NCBI GenBank assembly: GCA_014898415.1
Contig: RCTD01000035.1
Coordinates: 310,001-374,000, forward strand
DNA: 64,000 nt
Direction: 5' to 3'
From: Stromatinia cepivora
Taxonomy: Eukaryota > Ascomycota > Leotiomycetes > Helotiales > Sclerotiniaceae
Of this stretch, positions 34,544 to 57,120 are shown piece by piece. The translations under genes were made by a program, and so were the position numbers. The notes below the pieces were generated by a model. The model was given only the letters and a program-made list of their open reading frames with translations. It was not told the DNA's origin and did not search any database. How positions within the stretch are numbered: position 1 is the stretch's first letter; the number at the start of each line of letters is the position of its first letter.

Positions 34544-36241
34544 TCAACTCCGCGAGGCATCCTCACCAACCGTATATCCTCTTGCCACACCACTTCTCCC
34601 TTCTTCCACAACCGCAGCTACTTCTCTTTCTCTACCCTCTTCAATCGCCTCTTTATCGAAATCACTACCTAGACCCGTCCAGGTCCTCTTCTCCCTCAAA
34701 TATTCTGCGCCAGGGCTAACCTCTCCATTCACTGTCGCTAACTCCATTTTGGCTCGCTTGACCAGTTTATTTGATGCATTGGGCTGCAAGCCATTCTCCA
34801 ACGTTTTCTTAGATTCCGAAGAAGTCGACTGAGAGGAGCGCATGGGTCGAGAATGCGAAACATATCGGCCGGTTCGAAGATCGAACTCGGGAGGCATTGA
34901 TTCTTCCTCGGAATCTTCTGCATCCCCGATAGCATTTCCATTTTCTGATTCCTCGACAGCATTTGATTCGGTAGGCTCCACGGATGGAACAGCAGCAATA
35001 GAAGCTTGCAGATTCAAGGCATTGAAATCTGCTACCCAATCTCCGCCCCAGACTCGTTCATCATCACTCTGTAAAGCTAACTCTAGCTCGAAAGGTGTAA
35101 TAACTGGTTTGAACAATGCTTCCCCCTCTACCAAACTACTTTCCCAACATCCGACCACTACCCATCCTTCTATTTCGCTGAAATTTGCCAACTTCGCAGC
35201 ATTAACCTTCCCTACCACAAATGTATATGATTTCTTTCCCTTCGATCGTATGAGTGAAGCCAGGGAATTGACCGTAGGTAAATAATTCGTTACACTTAAG
35301 GTATTAATCAGGATACCAAATACGGCACAGGAAGATAGGGATGTAAGTAAAGCATATCTCCGCATAAGCGCTCGTGCCGCGTTTGTTTTTGTCATTTCAT
35401 TTCCTGTCGTAGAATCTGTGGAGTAAATGTGCATGTCCTTGACTCTTCCTGACAACGTAAGTAGTAACGCAGACGGTGGTTCACTAATGTGAAATAAACT
35501 ATACTCCTTCATATCTATGCCTTCATCCAACTTTCGATTCGGAATTATCGCACTGGGATCGTGTGTAATATCTGGCGCAAGTAAATTTTCGTAGCCTCCG
35601 TCTCGTAATAGGGTGACAAGAGATGAAATATGCGAGTGATAGGTGATGTCAGCCATAATGACAATTTTGCCATCCTTCTCATTATATGTATTTTCAAATG
35701 CTTGCACGACGGACTCGAGTTTTAGAGGTCTAGATGTGAATACATAGATCACAGGTAATCGTGCAGTGGGAGATAGACAAGCGCGGCCATAATGAATGAC
35801 TACCTGCGCATCGACATGTTCGGCTGCGATTTCATCAACACAACAAGGACCATAAGACGTATCTGCCAATATGTATAATTTATGTCGTATACTCGAGGTC
35901 GCAATGTTCGCGGATGGATTGCTGAAGTCTGTTTCTAGGCTTGAGTTTTCTGTCTTTGGAATTTCGTTCGAAGCTGGTTCGGCAGGTAACTTCCGAAGCC
36001 TATTTCCCAGTTCTTGAAAAACTCTCGGTGCATCTGATAACATGCCATCTGAAAATTGTAAAGCTATTTTCTTCCATCCTCCTTCTCGTATCTCCTTCAC
36101 CGTCCGCGAAATCTCGTAAACATCGAACAACTCTTTGTCTGAAAGTTTTGGGAGATCATCCTTTTTAATGGAGGGCGTGGGATCTTCGAATATATGTACT
36201 TCTGGTGTTGATAGAACTGGCGCTGTGGTTAGTTGTTCCAT
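34544..36241 (-). CDS. DPH2: Diphthamide biosynthesis subunit 2
   Basis: Single-exon ORF, partner of DPH1 in the iron-sulfur, S-adenosylmethionine-dependent transfer of a 3-amino-3-carboxypropyl group to the eEF2 histidine, the first step of diphthamide synthesis in the cytosol. Counting from the upstream ATG (36,304; 586 aa), GWKKIALQFSDGMLSDAP is at 76-93 and ADTSYGPCCVDEIAAEH with VIHYGRACLSP at 147-179. A middle Cys is at 326, and GCWESSLVEGEALFKP is at 385-400. The tail after about 440 is acidic and disordered. I prefer Met22 of the long ORF (36,241; MEQLTTAPVL), because the first ATG lies inside a 17-bp inverted repeat. Length is normal for fungal DPH2. Confidence 0.93.
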   Translation of the reverse strand: MEQLTTAPVLSTPEVHIFEDPTPSIKKDDLPKLSDKELFDVYEISRTVKEIREGGWKKIALQFSDGMLSDAPRVFQELGNRLRKLPAEPASNEIPKTENSSLETDFSNPSANIATSSIRHKLYILADTSYGPCCVDEIAAEHVDAQVVIHYGRACLSPTARLPVIYVFTSRPLKLESVVQAFENTYNEKDGKIVIMADITYHSHISSLVTLLRDGGYENLLAPDITHDPSAIIPNRKLDEGIDMKEYSLFHISEPPSALLLTLSGRVKDMHIYSTDSTTGNEMTKTNAARALMRRYALLTSLSSCAVFGILINTLSVTNYLPTVNSLASLIRSKGKKSYTFVVGKVNAAKLANFSEIEGWVVVGCWESSLVEGEALFKPVITPFELELALQSDDERVWGGDWVADFNALNLQASIAAVPSVEPTESNAVEESENGNAIGDAEDSEEESMPPEFDLRTGRYVSHSRPMRSSQSTSSESKKTLENGLQPNASNKLVKRAKMELATVNGEVSPGAEYLREKRTWTGLGSDFDKEAIEEGREREVAAVVEEGRSGVARGYTVGEDASRS

Positions 36242-46594: not shown

Positions 46595-47125
46595 TCAAAA
46601 TGGGTGTCCCCAATTGAATGCGAAGCCAACAGCAATAATTGTCAAAGTAATCAAAATCATGCTAACCAGCCATTTGCAGACATCCTCAGCATGGCCTATA
46701 TCCAGATCCTCGTCGTTCAACATCTCTAATTCGGTTTGTGTTTGTATGTATAAAGCTTCATAGGACGGTGGTGGAGGTTGGTTCGAATCTATCGTGATAA
46801 TGAAGGGGTCATCTCGGTAAGATTCTTGGTATTGAAGCGGTATATCGTTTGTATGATCCTGCAACGATGATCCATATTCAGGAGGCCACAATTGAGATAA
46901 TCGGCGTACTCTACTGGCCAAATAATCATGCATTGGCTCATATCCAGGAGGTTCGCTCATATCAGCTTGGTTTTCTTCAATTCCTTCTATAACCTCCGCA
47001 ATTTCATCGTCTGCTGGATCATCATGATACGGTGCGAGAGGTGTTGTATCTTCTTCAGGCAATGGTGGTAACGATTGTGTGAGTCGTGCTCGAGGAATCG
47101 AGGTTAATGGGTGATGGTTGGTCAT
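46595..47125 (-). CDS. PPxY-motif tail-anchored protein
   Basis: 176 aa from ATG 47,125; the frame is open to 47,197 without an earlier ATG, so an upstream exon is possible. The long N-terminal part is acidic and Pro-rich with three PY motifs: PPGYEP, PPEYGS and PPPPSYEAL. One hydrophobic segment near the C terminus (WLVSMILITLTIIAVGFAF) leaves a tail of a few residues (NWGHPF). PY motifs on a membrane protein are the known docking sites for WW domains of Rsp5/Nedd4 ubiquitin ligases and arrestin-like adaptors, so an adaptor role at endomembranes is a reasonable guess. I know no named family for it. Confidence 0.6.
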   Translation of the reverse strand: MTNHHPLTSIPRARLTQSLPPLPEEDTTPLAPYHDDPADDEIAEVIEGIEENQADMSEPPGYEPMHDYLASRVRRLSQLWPPEYGSSLQDHTNDIPLQYQESYRDDPFIITIDSNQPPPPSYEALYIQTQTELEMLNDEDLDIGHAEDVCKWLVSMILITLTIIAVGFAFNWGHPF

Positions 47126-48314: not shown

Positions 48315-49061
48315 ATTGTGCTGCGGGCATAATTACAGGAGTTTGAGATTGTATCACACAAACTTCAAGCAAATTTCGATCTCTCAGTCGAGTATGACAA
48401 GTCAATATTCGCCTCTTCGGAGTATAAAACAATCAAGCAAGACTTTTTAAAAATAACTTTATTACCCTAATTTTCATAGACCCATGAAATTGTGAATCAA
48501 AGTGTGACTACCCCAACTACCTGATAATTCCAACCTTCATAATTCAAGCACTCTGCATTAGCAATATGAACAAAAATAAAATATCCTCAATTCAACGATA
48601 AGCGTGCACTAATGTACTTTTAATAGAATTCAATGAATAGTCCCAGTCCAGTCTGACTGTGCTTCATTATCAACTTTTTCTGGAAGTCTAAATTTGATAA
48701 ACAATCCAAAAAGAAGTGTTTTGTGAATCGACGACTACCAATACTTTCTGCTTTCCTATACACATTATTCTCAGTATAAAATCGAAGCCGGATCCGGAAT
48801 CCTATTTGTACAAGTTTTAATAATGGGCGTGCAATGTAATAATGGGCGTGCAATGAATGGTGATGAAATCCACCTCCTCCTCGGGTGGTGTGGTATGCAC
48901 ATCTTTCTCGTTTTGCTACATTTTCACTCAGCTATCTATCTCACTATTATCACTTCATTGTTCATCATATCAAATTAATTTAAATTGCAAAAGTACATTT
49001 TATTCTCTCTACCCTTTTTTTGTGAGGACCAGCTCACCACCTTTACGTACGGCAATAGCAA
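48315..49061. other. Intergenic with a 19-bp tandem duplication
   Basis: Two copies of AATAATGGGCGTGCAATG plus one base lie head to tail at 48,819-48,837 and 48,838-48,856. Otherwise only short overlapping ORFs without features. Confidence 0.55.
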
Positions 49062-49604
49062 TTACTCGATCAAAAAAACTAGGTCATCCTCAGACACTTG
49101 GGCATCCTCATCAACTTCGGGAGGATCATTCGCCTGGGCATCCTCATCGACTTGGAGAGGATCATCCACTTGGGCAGCCACCCAGTCCGGATCCGAAGCC
49201 TGCTCCATATCAAGAAGCCACCCACGATACTTCGCAATCATATTTGCTCTTACCATTTCTTTCTCCATAAAAAAAATTCTATACGGACGTCTTGCTCTTT
49301 GTTGCTGCTCAGGCTCATCAATTTCCTCCTCCGGAGGATACTGCCCAGGCATTGGCCGCTCTCTACCAAGTCTCCTTCTCTCTGCAATTATCCTCTCCAA
49401 AATGAAATCATTGTTACCGTGAAGTTGGCTCGCAATCCATGGATCGAGAACTTCTTCTAGAACGGCTTGAAAGACAACGTTCAAGCCAATTCGGAACGTT
49501 CCGAAGATGGCCATTGGCAGCGTGATGGTGATCATCAACACGAAGAAGAAACATACGTAGTGGAGGAGGAGTGTAAGAACAAGCATAACCAATGTGAGAT
49601 ACAT
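49062..49604 (-). CDS. Small orphan membrane protein, paralog A
   Basis: 180 aa, ATG at 49,604. Residues 1-45 are hydrophobic (LVMLVLTLLLHYVCFFFVLM and ITLPMAIFGTF), giving one or two membrane segments. Then come VFQAVLEEVLDPW (44-56) and LHGNNDFILERIIAERRR (61-78), both shared with the ORF at 50,406-50,891. After a Pro/Gln/Glu-rich stretch the C terminus has an acidic 12-residue repeat, DDPLQVDEDAQA followed by NDPPEVDEDAQV. Family not recognised; function unknown. Confidence 0.55.
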   Translation of the reverse strand: MYLTLVMLVLTLLLHYVCFFFVLMITITLPMAIFGTFRIGLNVVFQAVLEEVLDPWIASQLHGNNDFILERIIAERRRLGRERPMPGQYPPEEEIDEPEQQQRARRPYRIFFMEKEMVRANMIAKYRGWLLDMEQASDPDWVAAQVDDPLQVDEDAQANDPPEVDEDAQVSEDDLVFLIE

Positions 49605-50405
49605 GGTGTTTTGAGGTTTTTTCTGTGTACGTGGGTTTTCTGATTGTAATACTTTACGTGATCCTTTTAAGACTTGGAAAATGTTACTAGCAGAAGTGGT
49701 TGGAAGAAAAGAGAGGCCAGTCTAGAATGGGGCTACAATAATTTATATACATCGTCTGGAGCTGGCCATAGAGCTGTTCTGGATTAGTCCGCGAGTTGTT
49801 TAGAGCCCTTTCGAGTCGTTGAAGTCTGAATACCCGTTGAATCTTATAGTAATAATGAAATAGAACAACCATAAAACAACAACTACCTCGAAGAAATGAT
49901 TACTGATGAATATGATATTTTGTTACTTGTTTTATGCATTTACCTATTCTATTTTATTATGGTAGGTGAGGAGAATGGGCACCTCGCCTTATAGATCTCA
50001 CATCGCACTGAACCCCTGAATAGCATTAATAATAATTTACACTACGAACCTATTTCTGATTAAGACGTCATAATAAACCTACCAATATGGTATCAAAAAT
50101 TTATACATTTGCTTGTTCTATGCATGCTTTAAATAATAAAATTTGCAGCTATGAGTTACGTCGATTTTCTATGAATATTTACAATGTCAAAATAAAATCC
50201 GATACGCATAATCACGGTATTATAACGCCATTTCTTCAGTAAGTATCATTTGCTTTTCTGACTTCGACGTTCTCATAAGTAATCTCATATTAAAGTAATT
50301 TGTTGTTTTTAGAAATATATTTCATTTGTTCTATTTTCTCCCGTTGGAGAAATACTGCCTCGCTACTTCCAAACAACAACCGCACCATCCAACGAATAAT
50401 ATCAC
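49605..50405. other. Intergenic, A/T-leaning
   Basis: Spacer between two paralogous minus-strand ORFs. A 61-codon minus-strand ORF at 49,687-49,872 has no recognisable feature. Confidence 0.5.
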
Positions 50406-50891
50406 TCAATCAAGCTCTTCATCAGAGTCCCGAGCCTCGTAAAACTCATCTATCTCACGAAGAATTCCCCGATGCCGTATGAATTCACGCTCCCGTACGG
50501 CCTCTCTCTCCCCATTCGCTTGTGACCGCGCCTCCTCAAGTGGTCCTCTTATGCGACGTCGCTCCTCGAGCCATTCCTCTAACATTAAATCATAATTATG
50601 CAGCGTCAAATGGCTTCTTGCCATTCGTGCTCGACATCGCGCATCGAACCATGCAAATTGCATTCTATTCGTCAATATCCACCCCGGCAATAGTTCGTGG
50701 AGAAAATCGATGAAAATATCGTTTTCTAGAAATTGCCACCAAAGCCATGGGCTCCACGGGATCATGACTGCCTCTAGAGCTTGGAAGAGACTTTGGATGT
50801 CGATCGGAACTCTCAAAATGATTAAGAGCGAGAAAAACAATGTGTAAAAAAGAAATGTTAGGGAAAGAAGTACTGCTCGTGCCAAGGGCAT
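50406..50891 (-). CDS. Small orphan membrane protein, paralog B
   Basis: 161 aa from ATG 50,891 (MPLARAVLLSL), chosen because it directly precedes the hydrophobic segment; an upstream in-frame ATG at 50,999 would add 36 polar residues. Residues 6-27 are a membrane segment (AVLLSLTFLFYTLFFSLLII). LFQALEAVMIPW (35-46) and LHNYDLMLEEWLEERRR (97-113) parallel the two motifs of the ORF at 49,062-49,604, with an extra 40 residues between them here. The tail is charged (EREAVREREF, ARDSDEELD). Unknown family and function. Confidence 0.55.
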   Translation of the reverse strand: MPLARAVLLSLTFLFYTLFFSLLIILRVPIDIQSLFQALEAVMIPWSPWLWWQFLENDIFIDFLHELLPGWILTNRMQFAWFDARCRARMARSHLTLHNYDLMLEEWLEERRRIRGPLEEARSQANGEREAVREREFIRHRGILREIDEFYEARDSDEELD

Positions 50892-51260
50892 GATTACTTT
50901 TCGGGGGGTTAGTGTTTGGGTTGTTATTTGTACTATCTCACTGGTTTCTTTAAAGTGTGAAGATGTTATTTTCGGAGATTGTTGAGGACAAAGGGACATT
51001 GAAACAGAGCTGGCTTCTTATGCACGGTCTAGCACTTGGCGATGGATGTTTTTTTTGGATTTGTTCAGGAAATGTTCTGGGACTCTTTACTTTTGCAAAT
51101 TGGCTCATTGTTACTTCGTTTATTGAAAACTAGTAATATGGTAAAAAAAATCTAATTTTATTATTTCAGAACAACCAAAGAGACTAGCGTGTTGCGACAA
51201 CCTAACGTTCTTACCCAGGTCTCACATTTCGACCCGAGCAACCTTCATCTCACTTTACCC
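50892..51260. other. Intergenic spacer
   Basis: 5' region of the 50,406-50,891 ORF. Nothing else supported. Confidence 0.5.
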
Positions 51261-51476
51261 TCAAGTCATTCGCTCAAAGCTCACAATCCCAAAAAGTAAC
51301 TCGCCATCTCGCTGCGGTTCCCGAGTCATTCTCGCGTCAAACCTTGTGCTAGTTAACAAATCACGACTAGACATGATATTGATAGCAACGATGCCACAAA
51401 TTATTGTCGGAACAATGATGAACCAGAAGAGAATAGGATCGTGAATTAGGAACGGGTCGGACCATAACATAGCCAT
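51261..51476 (-). CDS. Small membrane ORF (71 aa)
   Basis: ATG 51,476 (MAMLWSDPFLIHDP). One membrane segment, ILFWFIIVPTIICGIVAINI, then a polar tail with RFDARMTREP. FDAR followed by RM-x-R also occurs in the 50,406-50,891 protein (FDARCRARMAR), a weak hint of relationship. The frame stays open to 51,650, but the added 58 residues look random. Unknown function. Confidence 0.4.
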   Translation of the reverse strand: MAMLWSDPFLIHDPILFWFIIVPTIICGIVAINIMSSRDLLTSTRFDARMTREPQRDGELLFGIVSFERMT

Positions 51477-51518
51477 TTTTGAGGTTTTGGTGTTTGAATT
51501 GTTTGTGATTGGGGATCT

Positions 51519-51544
51519 TGCGCTCGTGTGTACACACGAGCGCA
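51519..51544. promoter_or_regulatory. 26-bp perfect palindrome upstream of the 71-aa ORF
   Basis: TGCGCTCGTGTGT followed immediately by its exact reverse complement, 43 bp before the ATG at 51,476. Its GC-rich, two-fold symmetric form would suit a dimeric regulator or a cruciform. The regulatory role is inference. Confidence 0.5.
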
Positions 51545-51963
51545 TGTGTACTATTCTTGTGAATGTAGTAGGTTCACTGTTGTTTGGAAATACACGAGGC
51601 AGAAGTTTGTGCAGAGGAGTAATGTCGGAATCTATCTTGCTTATATACATAATTTGGACATGGAACCACTGTTCAAGAAACTATTAGATGCTTTGATGTC
51701 GTGGCGAATCAAAGTCGAGGGAGCTCATCTAATATTTCCCCTATATTTTTACCGAATCATTACATCACAGTTTTCTAATTGTCGAATCTTTGGAGTCACG
51801 GCATTTTTTGCAATTAGTGATTTTGTTTTCAAAAAAGTCTTTTACTGTTACCGTACCTAGTCTGCATGGGAACAAGCCAAAAAGAAACGACCGCTCAGCA
51901 GTCTACACCTTTCGCCCATTAACCAACCCCCGCACTCCTACACCCCTGAAGCTCCCATACCAC
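51545..51963. other. Intergenic spacer
   Basis: Short plus-strand ORFs only (51,487-52,059), none with recognisable features. Confidence 0.5.
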
Positions 51964-52221
51964 TCACATCCATGCTGCTCTCATACACAAATACATCATA
52001 ACCAAAAGCAACACGCCTTCGAAAATCTCAGGATTGTGGATGACATAAAGAGGCATTGAGATAAAGACATGATAAAAGCCGCGCAAAGGAGCGATGAAGT
52101 AAGCACCAATTATGGTGAGAAGTATTTCGATCATGAACCACTCGAAAAGTTGTCTCAAAGTTATGTTTTTGCCAACGAACCTGAAGTCCCTAACATCTAT
52201 AAATGGATACTCGATGTTCAT
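51964..52221 (-). CDS. Small membrane ORF (85 aa)
   Basis: ATG 52,221 (MNIEYPFIDVRDF). Two hydrophobic segments, FMIEILLTIIGAYFIAPL and GVLLLVMMYLCMRAAWM, joined by FYHVFISMPLYVIHNPE. It ends right at the edge of the second A/T island. Unknown family. It is supported only by the ATG, openness and hydrophobic pattern. Confidence 0.4.
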   Translation of the reverse strand: MNIEYPFIDVRDFRFVGKNITLRQLFEWFMIEILLTIIGAYFIAPLRGFYHVFISMPLYVIHNPEIFEGVLLLVMMYLCMRAAWM

Positions 52222-52834
52222 ATGGATTTCATGGTCTATGTCGAAATACCGTCCGTTTAGTTCGTGTAGATGATTGTATAGGGTAGTCCATGATTGTAGA
52301 TCTTGACGATTACTATAGATTGTTGATGTAAGATATTTTAACTTTTGGTGAGTTTTAGAGTTTTATAATACTGATAAAGAGAAAAAAGAAAAGTATAAAA
52401 GAATTACATCATCGCCATTTTATTTAAAATACTTGAAATTGTTGTTGCATTGTTATGATATTATTATTATATTGTTCGATTTTGGCATCGGATTAGTTTA
52501 ATCTATTTATAATATTAATTGGTATTAGGACTCTTACTATATATATCCTCTCTATTCGATTAATCTATATATGACTGAAGAGCGTATTCTCTTGCGGCCA
52601 TTAATACAATGAGTGATTCCGGATTTTACCCGGATTTGATTATTAATATTATTTCATTTAAAGTAAATTATTAAATCAACCTTTCATTATTTTGATATAG
52701 AATTTTGACATATTTGAGATTTCGATATATAGTTTAATAATAATAAAAAGTTATTTATATATTCTATTTTAATTCTTCAATATTTAGTATATTAGTTTTT
52801 AATTATAATATAGACCTTTATTCTTTTCGATATA
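52222..52834. other. Left edge of second A/T island
   Basis: Composition turns A/T-rich from about 52,330. No domain or ORF recognised. Confidence 0.55.
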
Positions 52835-52839
52835 TTAGT

Positions 52840-52989
52840 TGTCACGAGATACACGTGATCGCGTCCGATCGGGCTAGTACGGTACTAAGCTTCGAGCCGA
52901 TCATATATATAGCTTCGTAACACTCTCTCTTTAACTCTATAACTTTTAATTTTAAGATTGATTTCTAAACGTTTGTTAGATTCGTTATA
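52840..52989 (+). repeat. Gag-only element, left LTR
   Basis: 150 bp beginning TGTCACGAGATACACGTG. It retains CG-rich words (GATCGCGTCCGATCGGGC) where the right LTR has A or T. Confidence 0.9.
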
Positions 52990-53099
52990 TTATTAAAAGC
53001 TTTTTTAGATAAGAAATAGAATAACATTTGTATATACTCATATATACTCTGCTTGCTTCTGTCTAAACATATACTCCTACTCTTTTGTTTATATATAGA

Positions 53100-54300
53100 T
53101 CTTCTTAATATTATTCGAAGATATTGTTTTTTTTCTTATCCTTAATTTTTAAGTTATAGATTACAATTCAATAAACTTTACGATTACAGAACTTTATGGC
53201 GAAATGATTTGTTAGTGGAATGAAATCTTGTTTTTACATTTTCTAATTCTCGAATACATTTCTATTACTTATATTCCTTCTTATCCGAAACCTTTTCTCC
53301 CTAATCCTGAAAAGTTCAATAATAACTTTCAAAAGTTCGATATTTGGCTTCTTTTGATTCGAGCGAAATTACAAGTAGATAACGTTGTGATCAACAATTT
53401 TACAATTCAATTTTATTATATTTATTTCAATTTCGAATTTTATATATAAGCTATAATACTATTTTAGTTTTCTTCTTTTGATCAAAACATTCCTTTAAAT
53501 CATACAATGATTCTAGATTAACTCATATATATTTATAACAATCCAAATAAAGTCCAAGAAGCCGAAGATAAGTTATTCATTTTTAAATAAGGAATTGATT
53601 CTCTATATATTTATATTACGAAATTCGAAAGAACTCTTTACAAAACCAAAAATCAGAATTAACCCGATTCGAATAAGATTTCAATCTTTCGCAATAGACT
53701 CAATACTATTCTTAGAAATCGTCTTTCTTAATAGTTTTCTTTTCCCTACTTTTATCCCAACTTTGTTTAGATTATATAACAATTAATTGTTCGTATAACA
53801 AATGGATTCTTTGTATCATTCCACTTTAGTAAACCTAGAGCCCCATATATATTACAGAATCTATTTCATTCTTGGAATTACAATTCAATAAATGTTAACA
53901 ATCTTAATGTTATTAATGCTCTTAGTTTTTTTGATGTCCAATTGGACAAGTTCGATTATACCTTGATTCTACTCTGCATACAAGTACCCGAGTTTTCTTC
54001 TTTTGAAAGAACTCTCTTATACAAACAAAATAAATATATATGATATAAAAGTATCTTCTATTGAATACAAATCTATTCATTAGATCTGTATTAAAGAACC
54101 CGAAATCGATAAAAGTCTATTCTGATTATTATACTGATTATTAAATCCGAAAGCAATGATGATAAGGACTTAAGAAAAATGATCAATGGCCGATATTTTG
54201 AAGATCGCTTGAAGGAGGTATATGGTACAATAAATACATATTCGTTGGTTGTGATGTATACTTCGCATCAGATATTTTTAGAAGAAAACGATTAATAATC
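53100..54300 (+). pseudogene. Retrotransposon gag (degenerate)
   Basis: At 53,270-53,400 the plus strand reads YPKPFLPNPEKFNNNFQKFD, then WLLLIRAKLQVD, matching fungal Ty3-type gag ('P.PP.P.PEKFDG....F..WL..I.AKL..D'). A second frame near 53,560-53,780 gives DSLYIYITKFERTLYKTKNQ and KISIFRNRLNTILRNRLS ('L..YI..FERTL.EA...W......I..F..GL...LR..L'). Stops and frame changes make it inactive. Confidence 0.8.
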
Positions 54301-54364
54301 ATTTTATACTTAATTCATTCATTTAAAATGAATTCGAGGTGAACTCTTCAGAAAAGGAGGGTAA

Positions 54365-54514
54365 TATCACGAAATACACATGATCGCATCCAATCGGGTT
54401 AATACAGTACTAAACTTCGAGTTGATTATATATATAACTTCGTAGTACTTTCTCTTTAGCTTTGTAACTTTTAATTCTAAGGTTGATCTCTAAACGTTTG
54501 TTGGGTTCGTCATA
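54365..54514 (+). repeat. Gag-only element, right LTR
   Basis: 150 bp beginning TATCACGAAATACACATG. Most differences from the left LTR are G-to-A or C-to-T on this copy. Confidence 0.9.
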
Positions 54515-54519
54515 TTAGT

Positions 54520-55238
54520 TTTCAATTTCATGAATAATTTAATATCTAATATATTTCATATTGCTTATAAACAATTCTTTAGTCTTTGTTTAGTATATTC
54601 TATATTGCTTCGATTATTAATAATATTAGAAAATATTTTAAAAATATATACTTTTAAATACTATCAAATATACTTTATAGAATTAAAATCGAAAGAATAA
54701 AGAGATTATTCTTTAATTAATTGAATACTCTGATTACAAAACCATTTTTATATTTTGATAGTATAATAAATAAGAGTATTATCCTGTATAAATTGATATT
54801 CTGGATTCAACTTTTCGAATATAAGGGTAATCTTTTCTTTAAGAATCTTGAAATAAAAATTGATATTATATTTATATTTTATATTCTTGAAATCTCTATT
54901 TATAATATAATTTTTTTTTTGGTATTATAAAAGTTTTTTTAGATTATAATCTTTATATTTTTATTTGTAATATAAATTTGAATTATATTTCGATTTTATT
55001 TTTGAAAGGGAATACAAAAGATTCATTTATTTTTTTATTCTGTTTTTATTTTATAAAGTATTTGTTTTATTCTTTTATTCTAAGATTTTTTTATAATAAA
55101 GTATTATATAAGATATTTATTTAAATATATATTTTCGAGTAAAGAATTATTTTTTTTTAGTTTTTTTAATTAAGGATCTTATAATTCTTGAGGATTTTTT
55201 TAATTTCTTTATATATAACTTTTGGATATAATTGTATA
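54520..55238. other. A/T-rich, nothing recognised
   Basis: Nearly all A/T. An ORF at 54,721-54,930 is hydrophobic by composition only. Confidence 0.55.
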
Positions 55239-55404
55239 TGTTGGAAATGAGGCCATCATAGGATTAGAATTGAGGTCACGAGACCACAATGGTGCACAGA
55301 CCATATTTGGGGATAACCTCAATTCTACTCCTACTAGAATTATAGATCCTTAGTTCAACCTACATAGTCAACAATACTACTACTTCCTGCACCAAAAGTT
55401 AACA
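55239..55404 (+). repeat. Solo LTR of the Copia-B family, well preserved
   Basis: 166 bp, TGTTGGAAATGAGGCC to CCAAAAGTTAACA, flanked by the 5-bp duplication GTATA (55,234-55,238; 55,405-55,409). It aligns to 31,353-31,518 and holds the G or C state at 22 of about 24 differences. No internal sequence follows, so it is a solo LTR. Confidence 0.92.
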
Positions 55405-55409
55405 GTATA

Positions 55410-56150
55410 TAATATAATAGAATTAATTCATTTTGTTTAATATATAATTTCTTTCGAGTTTTATAAGATAAAAAGATCCTTTTATTATATAATATATTCT
55501 ACTTTATAATGTATTATATAATATTATAAAAGATTTTAAATTCTTTTGTAATTTTTGTTAAGCGAATGTTTTCTTTGGTTTTCTTTATAATTTTTCTATA
55601 TATATAATATAAAATATTTATAAGCTACTTTATTTATCGAAATTGATTTCAATGGAGGATATGGTATTGATATATTTAATAAATAAATTAGATTGTTAAA
55701 ATATGTATTCAGAAAAATATGTGTTTTTATAATGTTTCGGCTAATATAAGTGAAGAGGTGCTGTAGATTATATATACCTCTTCAAATCACGTATTATTGC
55801 TAACTTCTCGGGCACATTATGTACAATCTTCACTTGTAGACTCTAAAATATCAATTTGAAGTTAGTTACACTCATTTCGATCATATTTACAATAGTTAAT
55901 GCTATAAAAAGACTCATCGAATTAGTCAATGAATTCAATTTTTTAAGTAATGTTTTTAATATTTATCTCAGATTCATAGTATCGGAAAGCTAGAAGACAG
56001 AGTCCGGATTTCTCTTCAAAAAAGAAAGAAAAAGTGTATAAAATCATCATACAAAGTTCGGATAGAAGAAGCGAAAATCAAATAGAACGACTGTTCACTC
56101 TACATTCTTCGCCTGATAACCACCATCTTACCATGATTCTGGTAATCTTG
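55410..56150. other. Right edge of second A/T island
   Basis: A/T-rich to about 55,900, then normal composition. No supported gene; the ORF at 56,034-56,270 overlaps the next gene on the opposite strand. Confidence 0.55.
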
Positions 56151-56483
56151 CTACGTGGGTCCACACGTACACCTCAACCAATCCCATCTAAAACGTCTCC
56201 TCACCCTCCTAGCAACCATCGTCAAAACATCCCCCCAAATGAACCCATAATAAGTAATCAAGAGAGGTAGCGCGATAGCAATAAACCAAAAAAGGAGAAG
56301 AGGAATATAAACAAGGATCAAAATCCAAAAGAGAAGAAGAAATATTACATTACCTTTGAAAGATTGTTTCCAGGATCGGTTTTTGTTGAGTAATATAGAT
56401 TCTAATTCCTCTACGAGGGGGTGCCAGACACTGGAGTTTAGTTGGTGCTCCAATTCGGCGAATGTTTCGTGGAGACGATTCAT
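56151..56483 (-). CDS. Small membrane ORF (110 aa)
   Basis: ATG 56,483 (MNRLHETFAELEHQL). A polar, helical N-terminal 40 residues (VWHPLVEELESILLN) is followed by two adjacent hydrophobic segments (GNVIFLLLFWILILVYIPLL and WFIAIALPLLITYYGFIWG), then a strongly basic tail (ARRVRRRFRWDW). Orientation and style match the four small ORFs left of the island. Family not recognised. Confidence 0.45.
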   Translation of the reverse strand: MNRLHETFAELEHQLNSSVWHPLVEELESILLNKNRSWKQSFKGNVIFLLLFWILILVYIPLLLFWFIAIALPLLITYYGFIWGDVLTMVARRVRRRFRWDWLRCTCGPT

Positions 56484-57120
56484 GGTTGGGGATGGTGGTG
56501 GGTTCTATGGGTTATTTGCTTTCTAGGACTGGTGAATATGAGAGGAGAATATAAAGGAGATATGGCCATTCTATTTATGTATCAAGACTTTGAATTGTTA
56601 TGGTATTGTTTTATCTTCCATACTGTCCTATATGAGACTCATCGACTATTCCTTGCTTGCATACATTAATGAACAGTGTCTGAACAGCAACGAAGTGAAA
56701 TTTTGAATTGGTCACGTGCCATCGATGTTCGGATTGGCAAGCTTTTGTCCCGCCAAAACCAATTAGCCCCTGTTATCCTCAACTTCATCAAGACTTTGGT
56801 GAACAAGAAAATAGAGATGGTGAAAATGATCGGACAAGGAGCGCTATTTTAGTGAACAACTGGATGGGGACTAGATGAGAATATGCGGTAGCCACGCCAT
56901 GTATAGCCAGCCGGAAATATAATTACGAGAATACACACTTGTGATCTGGTAGTTACATATCCTACCGCAACCTTTCCAGTGAATTTTTGCCTCGATTAAG
57001 GAAGGTGTCTACTTTCAAGTCTTCCAGAGGCATACATTACTTCGACTTCCTTTCACTTTTTCCGAGTTCCTTCCTTCAAAATACTCTCAAGAAATCGCAA
57101 AAGTTACCTCCCCCGAAGAA
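56484..57120. other. Intergenic spacer
   Basis: Nothing supported apart from the open upstream extension of the 2EXR frame (from 56,983), which has no ATG. Confidence 0.5.

What the first reader, a model, noticed from the sequence alone, without database searches (positions are those of the whole stretch)
49062..56483. Cluster of five minus-strand small membrane-protein ORFs around a TE island
ORFs at 49,062-49,604, 50,406-50,891, 51,261-51,476, 51,964-52,221 and 56,151-56,483 all lie on the minus strand, all carry one or two hydrophobic segments plus charged tails, and none belongs to a family I know. The A/T island at 52.3-55.9 kb separates the fifth from the rest. This looks like a lineage-specific, fast-evolving family expanding next to transposons, as seen for effector-like or allorecognition gene clusters in fungi; the role is unknown.
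Basis: partly seen in the sequence, partly recalled or inferred. Interest (0 to 1): 0.75.

Follow-up and report, generated by a model that had tools for sequence, protein, structure and literature searches.

The report
Two tandem orphan membrane-protein gene pairs
In a fungus very close to Sclerotinia, a short stretch of DNA beside transposon remains carries small membrane-protein genes for which we found no relatives, four of them forming two old duplicated pairs; genes of this sort are common in fungi, so it is a solid but modest find.

Summary
All five minus-strand ORFs are present at the stated coordinates and each has a strong hydrophobic segment. They are not one family. Four form two divergent duplicate pairs: O1/O2 (49,062-49,604; 50,406-50,891) and O4/O5 (51,964-52,221; 56,151-56,483). 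Pair scores beat every or nearly every shuffle and all 1,767 control pairs of hydrophobic ORFs from the same contig. Each pair also shares upstream DNA, so genes were copied with their promoter regions. O3 (71 aa) has no proven relative, and the two pairs are not detectably related. No further copy was found in this 55.7-Mb genome. O2 and the O4/O5 alignment found no relatives in a large protein collection where a neighbour gene finds Sclerotinia species at 94-97%; but O5 itself was not found there either, so absence is weak evidence. The A/T island between O4 and O5 holds multi-copy repeats. Most likely: lineage-restricted endomembrane proteins, comparable to yeast DUP240; function inferred only. 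An effector or allorecognition role has no support here.

The parts
49062..49604 (-). O1, 180 aa: N-terminal hydrophobic segment (residues 1-41), charged tail ending in an acidic 12-residue tandem repeat
   Evidence: paralogue of O2
50406..50891 (-). O2, 161 aa (in-frame ATG also at 50,999): N-terminal hydrophobic segment, Arg-rich charged tail
   Evidence: paralogue of O1
51261..51476 (-). O3, 71 aa: one hydrophobic segment; no proven paralogue, weakest candidate
51964..52221 (-). O4, 85 aa as listed; the homology to O5 continues upstream in the same open frame to about 52,284, so the true start is uncertain
56151..56483 (-). O5, 110 aa: 45-residue hydrophobic stretch (40-84) flanked by basic residues
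49632..49811 (-). 5' flank of O1, aligns with that of O2
50917..51088 (-). 5' flank of O2, aligns with that of O1
52346..52462 (-). 5' flank of O4, aligns with that of O5
56496..56617 (-). 5' flank of O5, aligns with that of O4
51832..51925 (-). 3' flank of O4, aligns with that of O5
   Evidence: (offsets 38-132 after the stop)
56029..56122 (-). 3' flank of O5, aligns with that of O4
   Evidence: (offsets 28-122 after the stop)
52501..56000 (.). A/T island with repeat remains between O4 and O5 (151-bp direct repeat at 52,842 and 54,367; another multi-copy element at 55,225-55,405)

Best explanation
These are real protein-coding genes (O3 less surely): two old local duplications of two different small membrane-protein genes, O1/O2 and O4/O5, each copied together with its upstream region, with repeats now lying between O4 and O5. 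Proposed mechanism, inferred only: O1/O2 sit in an internal (ER or secretory-pathway) membrane by an N-terminal anchor and hold a long charged tail in the cytosol; O4/O5 sit there by a hairpin or two passes with basic cytosolic ends. They would act as non-essential adaptors that recruit or regulate trafficking or membrane partners, as suggested for yeast DUP240 proteins, the copies having diverged in partner or expression. Shown: frames, hydrophobic segments, pairwise homology, shared flanks, no further copy found. Inferred: expression, topology, location, function, lineage restriction.
For: Smith-Waterman score of O4 (upstream-extended) with O5 is 101, z 11-14, reached by 0 of 1,000 shuffles in each of three schemes; O4 as listed scores 73, also 0 of 1,000; O1/O2 scores 59, z 4-6, reached by 0, 2 and 3 of 1,000. 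Among 1,767 pairs of 60 control hydrophobic ORFs the maximum is 55. In whole-genome searches O5 finds O4 at E 4.1e-4 and O4 finds O5 at 2.7e-4. 200-nt 5' flanks score 45 (O1/O2) and 54 (O4/O5), each reached by 0 of 500 shuffles, against a maximum of 39.5 in 5,830 control pairs. The 3' flank of O4/O5 scores 44, 0 of 500 shuffles, control maximum 42.0 of 5,826. The aligned O4/O5 frame has no stop in 101 codons; identity at codon positions 1, 2, 3 is 0.46, 0.54, 0.38, and for O1/O2 (125 codons) 0.48, 0.56, 0.35. DUP240 as a tandem, nonessential membrane family: passages of PMC2675101 and PMC4055711.
Against: Codon usage does not vouch for O2-O5. No transcript or protein data were available. O4 has no in-frame ATG where O5 starts, so it may be shortened or decaying. 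Structure models are poor (mean pLDDT 64.3 and 72.8, pTM 0.25 and 0.33), and the O5 model is one helix 2-78 plus 80-106, not a clear hairpin. The O5 model has no PDB match. O4's 5' flank has a GC of 0.24, outside the control pool's range of 0.28-0.48, so its control rests on the shuffles. The codon-position pattern leans on an alignment made on protein. O1 was not searched in the protein collection, and that collection did not return O5 itself, so lineage restriction is weakly tested.
Confidence: 0.55

Rival explanations
1. Remains of genes: the duplications were real but the copies are now decaying beside an A/T island, with only chance-open frames left.
For: O4 lacks an in-frame ATG at the position of O5's start; O3-O5 are individually no longer than chance ORFs; O4/O5 coding DNA is at the shuffle level while the flanks still align.
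Against: O1 and O2 are long for chance; both aligned pairs are free of stops although silent sites are near saturation (pS 0.72 and 0.77); second codon positions are the most alike and third the least, though the alignment was made on protein.
Confidence: 0.2
2. De novo membrane ORFs: noncoding T-rich DNA gave rise to hydrophobic frames, two of which were then duplicated.
For: No relative found for O2 or the O4/O5 alignment in the protein collection; transmembrane proteins arising from thymine-rich intergenic DNA are proposed for yeast (PMC7005711, abstract).
Against: The pairs are already very divergent, so they are not of the newest kind; de novo origin cannot be told from fast divergence without sister genomes.
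Confidence: 0.13
3. Effector-like or allorecognition genes in a transposon-associated fast-evolving compartment.
For: Small, duplicated, near repeats, without known relatives; O4/O5 coding DNA less alignable than its flanks; a sub-threshold AVR-Pik_HID match in O1 (E 0.0091, 16.4 bits, cut-off 27).
Against: The hydrophobic segments look like long anchors without an evident cleavage site (judged by eye only); the AVR-Pik-like stretch is modelled as helix at low confidence; no HET, NLR or cell-death domain in the five ORFs or the ten window ORFs scanned; dN estimate below dS.
Confidence: 0.07

Closest known systems
DUP240 family of Saccharomyces cerevisiae
   Same: Nonessential membrane-spanning proteins, species-specific expansion, tandem array of six on chromosome I (passages of PMC2675101 and PMC4055711)
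   Different: No sequence relation shown; here two pairs without detectable relation to each other, and no second site found in the genome
Species-specific small proteins of Sclerotinia sclerotiorum and Botrytis cinerea
   Different: Here paralogy and shared upstream DNA argue that the ORFs are genes; whether those species carry them was not testable
De novo emerging transmembrane ORFs of yeast
   Same: Hydrophobic proteins without found homologues (PMC7005711, abstract)
   Different: Here already duplicated and deeply diverged

Membership tests
DUP240 (considered as an analogy) | small proteins with transmembrane segments in local paralogous copies | tested here: met
DUP240 (considered as an analogy) | sequence homology to the family | tested here: not met
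   no Pfam family above cut-off; not filed as a member
AVR-Pik-like effectors | AVR-Pik_HID domain at or above the gathering score | tested here: not met
   16.4 bits against 27, O1 only
Fungal secreted effectors | cleavable signal peptide | not testable with these tools
   no predictor on hand; the segments of O1 and O2 look like anchors by eye
Fungal allorecognition loci | HET, NLR or known cell-death domains in or beside the genes | tested here: inconclusive
   none in the five ORFs or in ten window ORFs scanned, but only part of the neighbourhood was scanned
Fungal allorecognition loci | balancing selection or trans-species alleles | not testable with these tools
   no population or sister-species DNA reachable
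Orphan (taxonomically restricted) genes | no homologue in related species | tested here: inconclusive
   O2: only itself at E up to 1, 55 candidates. O4/O5 alignment: none at E up to 10, 150 candidates, O5 itself not returned. A DPH2 control finds Sclerotiniaceae.

The most novel reading that the evidence does not exclude
An uncharacterised locus of small membrane-protein pairs specific to one Sclerotinia lineage, whose O4/O5 copies keep their flanking DNA while the proteins diverge, as expected of a conflict locus (self/nonself or poison-antidote) rather than of housekeeping genes.
Probability: 0.07. Interest if true: 0.75.

Novelty: new member of a known kind. Interest (0 to 1): 0.35.

Why it matters
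It turns five ORFs without a known family into two demonstrable gene duplications plus one doubtful ORF, which is better evidence of coding than a single orphan ORF can offer, and it gives a small test case for how membrane-protein genes without known relatives arise, duplicate and persist beside transposon remains in a genus that includes major plant pathogens.

Tried and rejected
One shared family: rejected. Pairwise scores between {O1,O2}, {O4,O5} and O3 are near the shuffle level (the best of these is O3/O5, reached by 29, 60 and 48 of 1,000 shuffles; O1/O5 by 29, 198 and 199), and the two pair profiles do not match (probability 0.4%).

Further copies: in the window plus 100 kb either side, tblastn and phmmer gave only the O4/O5 pair below E 0.01 in the output seen (its output was cut in the middle, in the part for extended O4 and O5). 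Weak hits at E 0.02-0.08 (for O1, O3, extended O4, O5), some on a repetitive stretch near 86.3 kb, were not pursued. Genome searches with O1, O2, O3, O5 and extended O4 gave no third copy at E up to 10, but the first look passed only one or two candidates each, so distant copies could be missed. The 5' flanks of O5 and O2 have no second match (O1's and O4's were not searched).

Viral origin: scans of viral contigs with both pair alignments matched 44 and 382 stretches by pattern, none a relative. Solved structures: one chance-level match each (E 1.2 and 2.3). Fold search of the O5 model: no match. The O1 model was judged too poor to search.

Positive selection: not shown. O4/O5: pS 0.72, pN 0.50; O1/O2: pS 0.77, pN 0.47. 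Against full saturation, 18 of 26 identical residues of O4/O5 use the same codon (10.3 expected if saturated); O1/O2 18 of 40 (16.5 expected). Identity figures from gapped DNA alignments are inflated, so scores against controls were used. RIP: the composite index is above zero in only 1 of 24 bins of 500 bases between 46 and 58 kb (52,501-53,000), so RIP in the island is not demonstrated. In the ORF-length test two stretches were joined; the 128-aa ORF there is most likely O4's frame running across the join and is not used as evidence.

Paper searches: no title or abstract opening listed names this locus; this is no exhaustive check of print.

Full report
Setting. The window lies in a 55.7-Mb genome of 48 contigs, at C35:310001-374000. 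Composition is bimodal: 15-23% GC per 2-kb bin from 1 to 32 kb and 41-45% after that, except a second A/T island at 52.5-56.0 kb. The DPH2 gene at 34,544-36,241 (minus) matches proteins named Sclerotinia nivalis at 97%, S. trifoliorum at 95% and S. sclerotiorum at 94%, so the source is a Sclerotinia or very close to it. Other ORFs of the window match an amidase, a protein kinase and, barely above cut-off, 2EXR.

The observation. All five ORFs are there on the minus strand. Best hydropathy values are 1.93-3.08; 66 of 323 comparable ORFs of the contig region exceed 1.6. O1 and O2 are longer than chance gives (161 aa or more in 1 of 300 shuffles); O3-O5 are not singly (110 aa or more in 46 of 300). 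Codon usage favours O1 (1 of 63 wrong-frame ORFs as high) and not the others (13 to 40 of 63).

Relationships. O4 and O5 are homologous: score 73 with O4 as listed, 101 when O4 is read from its open upstream frame; none of 1,000 shuffles in any of three schemes reaches either, and they find each other in the genome at E 4.1e-4 and 2.7e-4. O1 and O2 are homologous with less margin: score 59; 0, 2 and 3 of 1,000 shuffles; BLASTP E 0.003 for the single comparison. Among 1,767 pairs of 60 control hydrophobic ORFs the best score was 55. No relation across the pairs, or with O3, stands out.

Flanks. The upstream DNA of each pair aligns (O1/O2 112 of 168, O4/O5 84 of 108 aligned bases identical), with scores of 45 and 54 for 200-nt flanks against a control maximum of 39.5 in 5,830 pairs. 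O4/O5 also share downstream DNA, score 44, control maximum 42.0 of 5,826; the O1/O2 downstream score (31.5) was reached by 20 of 5,826 control pairs and is not claimed. The identities come from gapped local alignments and are inflated. For O4/O5 the coding DNA is at the shuffle level (local z 0.0) while the flanks stand at z 7.0 and 9.2; for O1/O2 coding DNA and 5' flank are alike (z 5.8 and 5.9). Silent sites are near saturation (O4/O5 pS 0.72, pN 0.50; O1/O2 pS 0.77, pN 0.47), yet O4/O5 use the same codon at 18 of 26 identical residues against 10.3 expected under saturation. Protein homology with stop-free frames fits selection on the protein, with the warning that the alignment was made on protein; neither fast nor positively selected evolution is proven.

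O4 start. O5's start codon aligns with a non-start codon in O4; the frame is open further upstream but holds no in-frame ATG. O4 may start at the listed ATG, in an unseen exon, or be damaged. I leave this open.

Proteins. O1 ends in an acidic tail built of a 36-bp repeat, 2.3 copies at 82% matches. O1 and O2 share an ERRR motif in the tail. O5 has a 45-residue hydrophobic stretch between basic ends. Models, each from a two-row alignment: O5 mean pLDDT 72.8, pTM 0.33; O1 64.3, pTM 0.25. No PDB fold match for O5. Pfam: no match above cut-off; the nearest are AVR-Pik_HID in O1 and DUF4014 in O5.

Distribution. O2 found only itself at E up to 1 in a collection of 5.8 billion proteins, 55 candidates scored; the O4/O5 alignment found none at E up to 10, 150 candidates. 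O5 itself was not returned, so small ORFs can be missing from the collection, and the negative is weak. In the own genome no third copy was found for any of the five.

The island. A 151-bp direct repeat lies at 52,842 and 54,367 (84% alike); a 181-bp query covering the first gave 42 matches with 40 of 715 candidates scored. Another element at 55,225-55,405 gave 40 matches at 94-100% including itself, 40 of 1,118 candidates scored, so repeats of that kind have probably moved recently. O4 and O5 are thus a local pair now separated by repeats. The composite RIP index is above zero in 1 of the 7 island bins (52,501-53,000) and in none of the 17 others between 46 and 58 kb: A/T richness is clear, RIP is not shown.

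Interpretation. Best reading: two small membrane-protein genes, each once duplicated with its promoter region. What they do is inferred by analogy with DUP240 of yeast, described as nonessential membrane-spanning proteins suggested to act in membrane trafficking (passages of PMC2675101 and PMC4055711). Species-specific small proteins are abundant in Sclerotinia and Botrytis (passage of PMC3158057), so novelty is moderate. The boldest reading left open is a lineage-specific conflict locus, for which the only hint is that O4/O5 flanks outlasted their coding DNA.

Noticed in passing
46595-47125 (minus): 176-aa ORF with a C-terminal hydrophobic segment and, by eye, two PPxY motifs (PPGY, PPSY); PPxY plus a membrane anchor recalls adaptors of Rsp5/Nedd4-type ubiquitin ligases (recalled, not tested). 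No second copy found in the genome; no Pfam match above cut-off.
   Followed up: partly
49095-49176: 36-bp in-frame tandem repeat (2.3 copies) coding the acidic tail of O1, a likely site of length variation between strains.
   Followed up: no
48818-48855: Perfect 19-bp tandem repeat, two copies, downstream of O1.
   Followed up: no
55225-55405: Repeat with copies up to 100% identical (over 166 bases) elsewhere in the genome and 1,118 first-look candidates: probably recently active, LTR-like by eye.
   Followed up: partly
1-32000: A 32-kb stretch of 15-23% GC per 2-kb bin, presumably repeat remains.
   Followed up: no
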